52,282 bases of DNA, taken from the NCBI GenBank assembly GCA_018062205.1, contig JAGOSP010000006.1, forward strand, positions 1 to 52,282. Direction: 5' to 3'. The notes beneath the pieces are model-generated. The model made no database searches, was not told where the DNA came from, and was given only the letters and a program-made list of their open reading frames with translations. The stretch is from Candidatus Moraniibacteriota bacterium (lineage in GTDB: Bacteria; Patescibacteriota; Minisyncoccia; Moranbacterales; UBA1568). Positions 8,530 to 37,161 of this stretch are shown piece by piece (the first letter of the stretch is position 1; every line of letters begins with the position of its first letter). The translations under genes were made by a program, and so were the position numbers.

Positions 8530-10002
8530 TTAAGATTTCTTTTTGAAGAGTTGTGTGAAAGGTGTCAAATCATCATTCGTAAGCTCCCCCGCAAAACGGA
8601 GAAGAACAAAATAGAGAAAGATGAGTAGTGTTCCGGAGAAGAGAAAGCTATATGATCCATGAGGAAGAATACGCGAGAAAGCCGATAAAAGAAGAACGCC
8701 TCCAAGAGACACAAGGAGTGTTCGTGGAGAAATTTGAACACGGAAATGTCGTTTAGTGGCGATGAGAATTGCGATAGTGACTGCGATGGAGATAATCGTC
8801 GTAGAAAGGGCGGCCCCGATAAGAAGCCATTGCGGAATAAGGAGAAAATTGAGCACAATCATGCCAAGAAATCCAAAAAAAGCGAGTTTCATAGGGATTT
8901 TGACAAGCCCTGCTCCGTTGAGAGCAAAGGAAAGAACGTAAAAAATTGTCAGAAAACCAACACCGAGAGCATAAATTTGCATGGGGCGTTCTGCAGCAGC
9001 GTATTGGCTTCCGTAGAAAAGGTGAAGGACTTGAGGGGTATACAGGATAAGAAAAGTGACCAGAGGGAAGAGAAGGAAAACCATAAGACGAAGTGCTTTG
9101 TTGACGAGGTTTTCGGTTTCCTTCGTATCTCGTTCGGCTGTGGTTTTGGAAATAGCAGGGAGAAGAATAATGGTGAGGGCATAGAAGAGATAGTAGGGAA
9201 TGCGCCCAGCGGTAATAGCAGCATTATAGATACCGGTGAGATAATCACTGCGGAGAAGACTCTTGATGAAGTAGAGGTCAAAAGTGAGAATACATTCATA
9301 GAAAAGAAGAAAGAGTGTGAGTGGCCCGGCATAAGCGAGTATGGTTTTTCCCGAGAAAGCCACAATTTTGTTTTTACTTTGTTTAACGTGAGGGAAATAA
9401 CGATGAGTGATGAGGATATCAGCAATAAGAGCAATCATGAAGACAAAAAGTGGTGCAGCGATATATCCCGAGACAGCACCGTGGACACCAAAGAAATAAG
9501 CAAAGCTAATGATAAATAGCATGCGTCCAAATGAGCGTATCATTTTGAGAGTTGCTTGGAGACGGAAGAAGTGTAGTCCGGTATAGTAGTAGAAATAGAA
9601 GGAAGCCGCGGCAAAAGCGGGAATAATGAGTGAAGAGAGATGGAAGAGGGGGGTGAGACTTGGGTCGTGAAGTGCGCGCGCAATGAGTGGCGCAGCGAGA
9701 AAGAAAAGAATGGTGACGGAAGACATAAGTATGACCTGGAGGCGTATAGCCTGGTGTTTGATGCCGAGGATTTTTTCGGGAGCGCTCTCAAATATTTCGG
9801 CCAGGTACTTAGACATCGCTGTCGGAATACCATTGCCAATCAAGATGATTACCATGGTAGTAAGCGTTACAACAAGACTGTAGCGGCCATAATCAGCCGG
9901 ACCGAGTATACGACCGACCGCTGATTGAATAATATAGCCAGCAATATTAAAAATAATTTCGGAGAAAGTGAGCCAAACGAGCGCCTGTGAGAATTTTTTC
10001 AT
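8530..10002 (-). CDS. Polysaccharide/lipid-linked oligosaccharide flippase (Wzx/MATE-like)
   Basis: The 490-residue protein has 12 to 14 predicted membrane segments. The N-terminus (KKFSQALVWLTFSEIIFNI, then GRILGPADYGRYSLVVTL) is typical of the oligosaccharide flippase/MurJ-like superfamily. A charged connection lies in the middle (TTAERDTKETENLVNKALRLM). Such proteins move undecaprenyl-linked sugar repeats across the cytoplasmic membrane. The setting, between two GT-C transferases and an O-antigen ligase-like gene, supports surface polysaccharide export. It is convergent with the preceding glycosyltransferase, and no clear terminator is seen in the 105-base gap. A MurJ role cannot be excluded without phylogeny. 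Confidence 0.85.
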   Translation of the reverse strand: MKKFSQALVWLTFSEIIFNIAGYIIQSAVGRILGPADYGRYSLVVTLTTMVIILIGNGIPTAMSKYLAEIFESAPEKILGIKHQAIRLQVILMSSVTILFFLAAPLIARALHDPSLTPLFHLSSLIIPAFAAASFYFYYYTGLHFFRLQATLKMIRSFGRMLFIISFAYFFGVHGAVSGYIAAPLFVFMIALIADILITHRYFPHVKQSKNKIVAFSGKTILAYAGPLTLFLLFYECILTFDLYFIKSLLRSDYLTGIYNAAITAGRIPYYLFYALTIILLPAISKTTAERDTKETENLVNKALRLMVFLLFPLVTFLILYTPQVLHLFYGSQYAAAERPMQIYALGVGFLTIFYVLSFALNGAGLVKIPMKLAFFGFLGMIVLNFLLIPQWLLIGAALSTTIISIAVTIAILIATKRHFRVQISPRTLLVSLGGVLLLSAFSRILPHGSYSFLFSGTLLIFLYFVLLRFAGELTNDDLTPFTQLFKKKS

Positions 10003-10048
10003 AGAGTATGTCTAGCGATATGTCTTGTATTGTAGCTTTTTTCTCTTG

Positions 10049-10087
10049 AAAAAGAAAAAAAGCCGTACTTTCAGTGAAAGGCCGGCT
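10049..10087 (-). terminator. Intrinsic terminator of the minus-strand RNA unit
   Basis: On the minus strand the hairpin pairs AGCCG with CGGCT and CTTTCA with TGAAAG. It is followed directly by a U-rich tract, seen as A-rich sequence at 10049-10060 on the plus strand. Confidence 0.85.
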
Positions 10088-10403
10088 GGTTTTTATGGTG
10101 GGGGCGCGGAGAGAGATGCACTCAGTGGAGATGAACGGCTTTGCGGGCGGCAGAGGAGGGGCGCCAGGTAAGCTTCTTTCCCTGCTGAGGGGCGTTCGGA
10201 AAGTCGATATCGAGTCGAAGATGGGGTGTTCCGACATCGACAAGGGCAAAAGTTTTTCACCCAACATTCCTACTGGCAGCACCATTTTTTGCGCAACTGT
10301 ACGATCATAGTTGTGTCCCCGCGCTCCCAAGAACCAAGCTCTTCTCTTTTGAAAAGCACATTTCTTGGGAGTGAAAAATGATTCTTGAAGAACTCTGAAT
10401 CGT
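10049..10403 (-). ncRNA. Candidate structured non-coding RNA, about 355 nt
   Basis: A minus-strand unit is bounded by an almost perfect promoter (10410-10438) and a strong intrinsic terminator (10049-10087). Near its 5' end a perfect 10-bp stem (CTCCCAAGAA, 10324-10333 with 10362-10371) encloses a smaller hairpin, and further complementary segments follow (TCGGAA/TTCCGA). Internal parts look richer in G+C than the flanks. The overlapping minus-strand frame from 10330 runs through the terminator to 9947 and resembles no known protein, so coding is unlikely. The size fits tmRNA or RNase P RNA, but the diagnostic motifs of those RNAs, of SRP RNA and of 6S RNA were not found. Identity is therefore unknown. 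Confidence 0.6.
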
Positions 10404-10409
10404 TGAAAA

Positions 10410-10438
10410 ATAATAGCAGCTACCTATTTTCCTGTCAA
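10410..10438 (-). promoter_or_regulatory. Strong sigma-70 type promoter, minus strand
   Basis: Read on the minus strand this is TTGACA (10438-10433), a 17-base spacer and TATTAT (10415-10410). Expected transcription start is near 10403. It fires away from the DUF559 gene into a region with no convincing protein frame. Confidence 0.8.
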
Positions 10439-10527
10439 GAAAATGTATGAAGAATACGAGAGTTGAGTATCGAGGAAATTTGGATAACCTGATGTGTTTC
10501 TGTCTGTAATTTTTTTCAAAAAATGAT

Positions 10528-10863
10528 TTATTGAAGGGATTTTTCTATTTTCGTCACAACCTCATTCAGATTCTCGTTAATTTCATTATTCCAAAAACGC
10601 AAGACCGTGTAATCAAAATCGGAAAAGTATGTTGCGCGGTCTCGATCGTGGTCTTTGTTATCTCTTCGTTTCCAGCCATCGATATCAATAGCGAGTTTCT
10701 TTTCAACACAACAAAAATCAACCCGATATGGACCGTGGGCATATTGACGAACAAAACGATGTCCGAGCGCTTGATTTTTGAGTCGTGACCAAAGTTTACT
10801 TTCTTGTGGGGTAGCATGTTTGACTTGTGCTCGTCGGGTTTTCTTGTGGGGTGAGAGAATCAT
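10528..10863 (-). CDS. DUF559 (Vsr/PD-(D/E)XK-like) endonuclease-domain protein
   Basis: This small 111-residue protein carries the DUF559 signature: an N-terminal ESKLWSRLKN helix, then GHRFVRQYAHGPYRVDFCC with the active-site Asp, then KKLAIDIDG, where the second acidic residue and the following strand sit. The C-terminal TYFSDFDYTVLRFWNNEI is typical of the family. DUF559 domains resemble very-short-patch-repair and restriction-like nucleases; their substrate is generally unknown. No restriction methylase is nearby. It lies between tmk and the candidate RNA unit, all on the minus strand. Confidence 0.88.
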   Translation of the reverse strand: MILSPHKKTRRAQVKHATPQESKLWSRLKNQALGHRFVRQYAHGPYRVDFCCVEKKLAIDIDGWKRRDNKDHDRDRATYFSDFDYTVLRFWNNEINENLNEVVTKIEKSLQ

Positions 10864-31648: not shown

Positions 31649-31660
31649 TAAAAAGACAAG

Positions 31661-31695
31661 AAAAAAGCCCCGGTGTCACAAAGCGTGATGGGGGC
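31661..31695 (-). terminator. Intrinsic terminator of the 176-nt RNA unit
   Basis: GCCCC (31667-31671) pairs with GGGGC (31691-31695), extended by TCAC/GTGA. It is followed on the minus strand by six U, seen as A at 31661-31666. Confidence 0.85.
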
Positions 31696-31836
31696 AACGT
31701 ATGAGGGTGAATGAGAAGAAAAAAAAGGTGAGAGGCCGAGAGAAGAGCTTGGAGAGTCTCTCTTGTCCCGACCTCGACCTAGAGGAACCCCATCGTGGTA
31801 GGATTCCATTCTCCAATCACTCTCCTTTGGATTTAC
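31661..31836 (-). ncRNA. Candidate structured non-coding RNA, about 176 nt
   Basis: A minus-strand unit has its own promoter (31843-31870) and terminator (31661-31695). Two strong helices are visible in the RNA: a 16-position stem with one mismatch (31760-31775 with 31732-31747), and a 7-bp stem (31801-31807 with 31784-31790). A protein frame (MESYHDGVPLGRG...) runs into the terminator and looks spurious. Length and hairpin-rich form resemble 6S RNA, but no diagnostic 6S bulge could be confirmed by eye, so the class is open. It lies between DUF1294 and yjbQ, antisense to both. Confidence 0.6.
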
Positions 31837-31842
31837 TATTTC

Positions 31843-31870
31843 ATTATACACCTTTTCGTTCTTTTGTCAA
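31843..31870 (-). promoter_or_regulatory. Consensus promoter, minus strand
   Basis: Read on the minus strand: TTGACA (31870-31865), 16-base spacer, TATAAT (31848-31843). Both hexamers are perfect. Confidence 0.88.
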
Positions 31871-36767: not shown

Positions 36768-36964
36768 AGTCAAAAATCCCGGTCTTTTGACCGGGATTTT
36801 TGTGTCTTGCGGGAGATGAAGCGAGTGAACTGCTTCACTCGCGTAGGGACGAGGAAAGCGGAGCGATGTTTCGCGAGTACGCGAAACCGCGAGCCGGGGT
36901 CGAGAAATTTCTTGCGCGCCGGTGTAAGAAATATTCGTGACCGAGTCCCGTCGCTCCCGCCAAG
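36746..36964 (+). repeat. 24-bp direct repeat of the tRNA-Asp 3' end flanking a hairpin-rich insert (att-like)
   Basis: The 24 bases from CCGAGTCCCG to CCAAG occur exactly at 36746-36769 and again at 36941-36964. The interval holds a perfect 13-bp terminator hairpin (36772-36801), a 9-bp hairpin (36821-36842, GCGAGTGAA arms) and an 8-bp hairpin (36868-36887, GTTTCGCG arms), plus a weaker one near 36906-36928. A second terminator follows the distal copy. Duplication of a tRNA 3' end is the usual footprint of site-specific integration; no integrase lies inside. Confidence 0.8.
36772..36801. terminator. Bidirectional terminator after tRNA-Asp
   Basis: AAAAATCCCGGTC and its exact complement are separated by TTTT, with T or A runs on both sides. 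Confidence 0.85.
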
Positions 36965-36972
36965 AAATGGAA

Positions 36973-37000
36973 AAGAGGCTCTTGTTGAGTCTCTTTTTTT
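36973..37000 (+). terminator. Terminator after the distal tRNA-Asp 3' copy
   Basis: AAGAGGCTC (36973-36981) pairs with GAGTCTCTT (36987-36995), followed by T. Probably the original terminator of the tRNA cluster before the insertion. Confidence 0.8.
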
Positions 37001-37060
37001 GTACTGGTTGATTGGATTTGTGTAGTGAAGAAAATACGTACATCCATCCCTCCGTCCTTC

Positions 37061-37089
37061 TTGACAGAAATACAAATATATAGTAAAAA
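37061..37089 (+). promoter_or_regulatory. Promoter of the orphan gene at 37162
   Basis: TTGACA (37061-37066), 17-base spacer, TAAAAA (37084-37089). Confidence 0.55.
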
Positions 37090-37161
37090 GTAAGGTGATC
37101 CATTCAGGTGGACACGCGACATTTCAACGGCCATTTGGCCACAACCCAGAGGAGTTCTTTC

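What the first reader, a model, noticed from the sequence alone, without database searches (positions are those of the whole stretch)
10049..10438. Autonomous 355-nt minus-strand RNA gene of unknown class
TTGACA-N17-TATTAT is followed 315 bases later by a textbook intrinsic terminator, and the space between has no believable protein but many complementary segments, including a perfect 10-bp 5' stem. The motifs of RNase P RNA (GAGGAAAGTCC), tmRNA and SRP RNA are not present by eye, so this may be a new or very divergent structured RNA.
Basis: partly seen in the sequence, partly recalled or inferred. Interest (0 to 1): 0.75.

Follow-up and report, generated by a model that had tools for sequence, protein, structure and literature searches.

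The report
Species-specific orphan small-RNA-like insert
In one tiny uncultivated bacterium, a piece of DNA unique to that species has been inserted between two neighbouring genes and carries a strong start signal, a folding sequence and a stop signal, so it probably makes a small RNA, but no relative of it exists in any genome searched and it cannot be called a new RNA class.

Summary
In detail: TTGACA-N17-TATTAT with an extended -10 (10438-10410, minus), a perfect 10-bp stem (10324-10371) and an intrinsic terminator (10087-10053) frame a non-coding, fairly structured ~350-nt stretch (fold z about -2.2 to -3.1). The claim of a new RNA class is not supported. The whole 525-bp gap between the DUF559 gene and the flippase gene is specific to this genome. 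The closest relative has 9 bp there, and 17 of 23 family genomes have a compact junction. BLASTN (131 order and 384 class genomes), a single-sequence covariance model (131 genomes), Rfam, and phage, plasmid and viral collections gave no homologue, so covariation cannot be tested. RNase P RNA and tmRNA lie elsewhere in the genome. A new observation: in two other genera the same tmk-flippase junction also holds a strong promoter, a structured body and a terminator in the same orientation, with unrelated sequence. Two more relatives carry long palindromes there. Best reading: a young, autonomously transcribed orphan small-RNA unit (not shown to be expressed) at a junction that repeatedly acquires hairpin-rich inserts. 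A flippase leader or a functionless insert remain possible. Elsewhere in the window, 31838-31655 (minus) is a better conserved-RNA candidate.

The parts
10003..10527 (-). lineage-specific insertion between the DUF559 stop codon and the flippase start codon
   Evidence: 9 bp in closest relative G002/L006, 72 bp in G003, compact in 17 of 23 family genomes
10410..10438 (-). sigma-70-type promoter TTGACA-N17-TATTAT with TGC extended -10
   Evidence: 15 such strong sites in about 205 kb from 6 genomes
10053..10403 (-). predicted transcript, about 350 nt
   Evidence: promoter to end of terminator T-run; fold z -2.2 to -3.1; expression not shown
10324..10371 (-). 5' hairpin: perfect 10-bp lower stem plus 7-bp upper stem
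10099..10323 (-). multi-branched domain closed by a 9-bp helix, stacked on the 5' hairpin
   Evidence: closing helix is the same in MFE, MEA and centroid folds
10053..10087 (-). intrinsic terminator hairpin and T-run
   Evidence: dG -12.6, z -2.65; forcing the 5' arm to pair upstream costs about 10 kcal/mol, so no antiterminator is predicted
10511..10531 (-). 5' junction resembling the ancestral spacer plus flippase start (TCATTTTTTGAAAAAAATT), possible remnant of a target duplication
   Evidence: alignment to L006 post-stop sequence, shuffle p about 0.01; equalled by 0.4% of window 25-mers; suggestive only
8530..10002 (-). downstream gene: polysaccharide flippase (Polysacc_synt / MurJ-MatE superfamily)
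   Evidence: Pfam
10528..10863 (-). upstream gene: DUF559 protein
   Evidence: Pfam PF04480
10924..11559 (-). thymidylate-kinase family gene, first gene of the conserved tmk-(DUF559)-flippase block
   Evidence: Pfam PF02223

Best explanation
A young, species-specific transcription unit. About 515 bp of non-coding DNA was gained between DUF559 and the flippase, splitting a formerly tight tmk-(DUF559)-flippase gene block. Housekeeping RNA polymerase should start at about 10403 on the minus strand and make a roughly 350-nt RNA that folds into a 5' hairpin plus one closed multi-branched domain, then stop at the terminator some 50 nt before the flippase. The product would be a stand-alone orphan small RNA; any regulatory effect, in trans or by uncoupling the flippase from tmk, is inferred. 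Shown: the insertion, the signals and the fold statistics. Inferred: transcription, processing and function.
For: Near-consensus promoter with correct spacing and extended -10. Terminator in the right place with no competing antiterminator. No coding signal. Fold more stable than shuffles. Same promoter - structured body - terminator layout at the same junction in G007 (TTGACA-17-TATAAT, 12 of 12; 211 nt; terminator -18.8) and G010 (TTGACA-17-TATCAT; 169 nt), in genera whose other readable members lack it. Strong promoters are rare: 15 in about 205 kb, 3 of them at this junction.
Against: No homologue anywhere, so no sign of selection on the RNA. Both strands fold equally well, and other intergenic stretches of this window fold better, for example z -8 at 36768-37107. 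No expression data.
Confidence: 0.5

Rival explanations
1. Functionless hairpin-rich insert: the junction tolerates repeated gain of palindromic or structured DNA (MITE/REP-like or replication-error-born), and the promoter and terminator are incidental or only insulate the operon.
For: Two relatives carry long imperfect palindromes at the same junction with no strong promoter (G014 z -5.9, G027 z -4.65). The window insert is single copy with no protein. The 5' junction weakly resembles a target duplication.
Against: No terminal inverted repeats and no second copy. Three of the six expanded junctions have a strong co-directional promoter plus a terminator, which chance insertion does not readily give.
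Confidence: 0.22
2. A long 5' leader of the flippase mRNA: transcription from 10438 is attenuated at the terminator some 50 nt upstream of the start codon, and read-through is regulated.
For: Promoter, structured leader and terminator directly upstream of the flippase, same orientation, in three genera.
Against: No alternative antiterminator pairing; breaking the terminator costs about 10-12 kcal/mol with no compensating helix. Leaders of the three genera share no sequence, unlike known riboswitches. No Rfam leader family matches.
Confidence: 0.18
3. Decayed protein gene or other foreign fragment, or an assembly artefact.
For: The middle is richer in G+C (56%; 65% in 10096-10200) than the window (45%). 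The insert is unique to one draft genome in 24 contigs.
Against: No Pfam match in any frame at E up to 10, no coding signal, no similar DNA in phages, plasmids or viral contigs. Synteny is intact on both sides.
Confidence: 0.1

Closest known systems
Bacterial intergenic small RNAs with their own sigma-70 promoter and intrinsic terminator
   Same: Promoter, non-coding structured body, Rho-independent terminator, 170-350 nt
   Different: No known homologue, target or chaperone; expression not shown; confined to one species
Transcription attenuators / riboswitch leaders
   Same: Promoter, structured RNA and terminator immediately upstream of a co-directional gene
   Different: No antiterminator, no conserved aptamer sequence between genera, no Rfam match
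Palindromic intergenic inserts (MITE- or REP-like)
   Same: Hairpin-rich lineage-specific DNA gained at a gene junction; relatives carry long palindromes at the same site
   Different: Single copy, no terminal inverted repeats, carries promoter and terminator
FuFi-1 RNA (RF02986), best minus-strand Rfam alignment over the body
   Same: Weak covariance alignment over 10201-10397
   Different: 16 bits against a gathering score of 59.6, E 0.43: chance level

Membership tests
RNase P RNA (RF00010) | Covariance-model match at this place | tested here: not met
   No match in 9950-10560 at E up to 10; a 106.5-bit copy lies at G000:C15:12191-12611
tmRNA (RF00023) | Covariance-model match at this place | tested here: not met
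   No match here; tmRNA is at G000:C3:54089-54524, 94.6 bits
SRP RNA (RF00169, RF01854) and 6S RNA (RF00013) | Covariance-model match at this place | tested here: not met
   Not among matches at E up to 10 in the region. RF00169 is not found anywhere in 28 family genomes
Any Rfam 15 family | Score above gathering threshold | tested here: not met
   Only five tRNAs in the window; four chance-level matches in the region
New conserved structured RNA class | Homologues with compensatory base changes | tested here: not met
   No homologue by BLASTN in 131 order and 384 class genomes or by single-sequence covariance model in 131 genomes
Intergenic small RNA gene | Own promoter and intrinsic terminator, no open frame | tested here: met
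Intergenic small RNA gene | Discrete transcript in cells | not testable with these tools
   No expression data held
Transcription attenuator / riboswitch | Mutually exclusive terminator and antiterminator | tested here: not met
   Best structure with the terminator 5' arm paired upstream is about 10 kcal/mol worse
MITE-like element | Terminal inverted repeats, target duplication, multiple copies | tested here: not met
   No terminal inverted repeat, single copy, only a weak duplication-like 5' junction

The most novel reading that the evidence does not exclude
The tmk-flippase junction of this Moranbacteria family is a site where unrelated, self-contained promoter-RNA-terminator units are repeatedly installed or evolve so fast that orthology is lost, that is, a class of fast-turnover RNA cassettes (or one extremely fast-evolving flippase regulator) defined by architecture and position rather than sequence.
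Probability: 0.15. Interest if true: 0.6.

Novelty: new member of a known kind. Interest (0 to 1): 0.33.

Why it matters
If expressed, it is a clear case of a small RNA gene born within one species lineage, with the empty ancestral site preserved in close relatives, in a group (Moranbacteria, Patescibacteria) for which the library searches here found no small-RNA study. The repeated appearance of the same layout at one junction in three genera is testable and would bear on how orphan bacterial RNAs arise. As a single sequence it does not establish a new RNA class.

Tried and rejected
Rfam at gathering and at E up to 10. Homology by BLASTN in own genome, relatives, order and class (9, 34, 39, 40), by single-sequence covariance model, in phages, plasmids and viral contigs: only short chance matches. 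Protein readings of all six frames: none. Antiterminator: none. Terminal inverted repeats and second copies: none. Similarity between the three junction RNAs: none above chance. Literature searches for Patescibacteria small RNAs: nothing relevant. PMC8250186 (abstract) states that a single-sequence fold prediction is not evidence for a functional structure, which is why the z-scores are given little weight.

Full report
What was claimed. A minus-strand unit at 10049-10438 with a sigma-70 promoter, a ~355-nt body and a terminator, read as a new or very divergent structured RNA.

Observation. The sequence shows TTGACA-N17-TATTAT with TGC before the -10 hexamer at 10438-10410, and a hairpin followed by a T-run at 10087-10050. 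The promoter is the best in its 5-kb neighbourhood, 11 of 12, and one of four sites with at least 11 of 12 in the 52-kb window. The terminator hairpin has dG -12.6 and z -2.65; the 5' hairpin 10324-10371 has dG -25.8 and z -3.88. The transcript folds into that hairpin, then a 9-bp helix closing a multi-branched domain of about 225 nt, then the terminator; MFE, MEA and centroid agree on these main helices. The fold z-score is -2.6, -2.2 to -4.0 depending on the ends, and -3.1. The opposite strand scores about the same, and 5% of random stretches reach -2.5, so thermodynamic evidence alone is weak. No frame has a coding signal or a Pfam match.

It is not a known RNA. Rfam gives nothing at gathering scores other than tRNAs and only chance-level matches at E up to 10. 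RNase P RNA is at G000:C15 and tmRNA at G000:C3.

It is an insertion. The genome belongs to a Moranbacteria family, judged from the record titles of the relatives. In the closest relative (G002, the same contig as L006; flippase 82%, DUF559 72%, tmk 75% identical) the DUF559 stop codon lies 9 bp before the flippase start. In G003 the gap is 72 bp. In more distant relatives without DUF559, tmk and flippase overlap by 4 bp or lie 9-20 bp apart. Of 23 family genomes whose junction was read, 17 are compact (72 bp or less) and 6 are expanded (204-525 bp) (G021, G005, G016, G015, G018 and G027 were also read as L007-L011 and L027). The 525 bp in the window are therefore a gain in this lineage. The first 20 bp of the insert resemble the old spacer plus flippase start (p about 0.01), which hints at a target duplication but is not firm.

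It is an orphan. BLASTN found no homologue in 57 relatives (three 19-32-nt matches at E 0.004-0.008 are chance), 131 genomes of the order or 384 of the class, and no second copy in the own genome. A covariance model built from the single sequence and its fold found only itself in 131 genomes. Phage, plasmid and viral-contig searches found nothing.

A recurring layout. Reading the same junction in relatives showed that G007 has TTGACA-N17-TATAAT (12 of 12, extended -10) at the end of tmk, then 211 nt (z -2.3), then a terminator (dG -18.8) about 37 nt before the flippase. G010 has TTGACA-N17-TATCAT, 169 nt (z -3.1), and a terminator (dG -9.5) about 26 nt before the flippase. Members of their own genera that could be read are compact (G008, G013; G009, G012, G015, G017, G019). 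The three units share no sequence. G014 and G027 instead carry long imperfect palindromes (z -5.9, -4.65). Promoters this strong are rare: 15 in about 205 kb from six genomes, three of them here. My rough estimate for the two additional ones, allowing for enrichment of promoters in intergenic DNA, is a few per cent by chance. This is post hoc and not a formal test.

How it most likely works. The simplest reading is an autonomous small RNA unit: start at about 10403, stop at about 10053. An attenuator leader of the flippase is less likely, because no antiterminator competes with the terminator and the leaders of the three genera are unrelated. A functionless hairpin-rich insert is the main alternative. 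Transcription has not been shown.

Contrast inside the window. At 31870-31655 (minus) there is a perfect promoter (TTGACA-N16-TATAAT), about 185 nt and a terminator. In G002 the syntenic place beside the topoisomerase gene keeps the promoter, the 5' segment ATAGTAAATCCAAAGGAGAG, hairpins with altered but apparently still pairing sequence (read by eye), and the terminator. That is what a conserved RNA looks like at this distance; the finding has no such counterpart.

Verdict. Observation confirmed. Interpretation partly supported: probably an RNA gene, not demonstrably a new class. Ordinary in kind, with one unexpected point, the recurrence of the layout at this junction.

Noticed in passing
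window 31655-31870 (minus); L074 1290-1560 (minus): Second small-RNA candidate: perfect promoter TTGACA-N16-TATAAT, about 185 nt, GCCCC...GGGGC-T6 terminator, no Rfam family. The syntenic region in G002 keeps promoter, 5' segment, hairpins with changed pairs and terminator. Better candidate for a new conserved RNA than the finding itself.
   Followed up: partly
28 family genomes, including the window's: No small bacterial SRP RNA (RF00169) at E up to 0.1 in any genome of the family, although 12 of 14 control genomes ring. SRP RNA may be very divergent here; RF01854 and Ffh were not searched genome-wide.
   Followed up: no
window 36768-37107 (+): Very strongly structured non-coding stretch just after the tRNA cluster (z about -8 on plus, -7 on minus): a terminator-like hairpin followed by a closed multi-branched fold. 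No Rfam match at gathering score.
   Followed up: partly
L087 970-1240, L093 (reverse complement) about 997-1220, L094, L058: tmk-flippase junctions of other genomes hold sequence-unrelated promoter-RNA-terminator units (G007, G010) or long palindromes (G014, G027).
   Followed up: partly
L075 1251-1292 (G001), L076 1501-1542 (G002), window 31870: A promoter block of the form TTGACAAA-N-GTAAAGGTGTATAATATAAAATAGTAA recurs almost unchanged in front of different coding genes in the genus and resembles the promoter at 31870: possibly a reused strong promoter module.
   Followed up: no
window 10528-10863 (minus): The DUF559 gene sits between tmk and flippase only in the window's genus (G000, G002, G003); other family members read lack it there, so this junction gained a gene as well.
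   Followed up: partly
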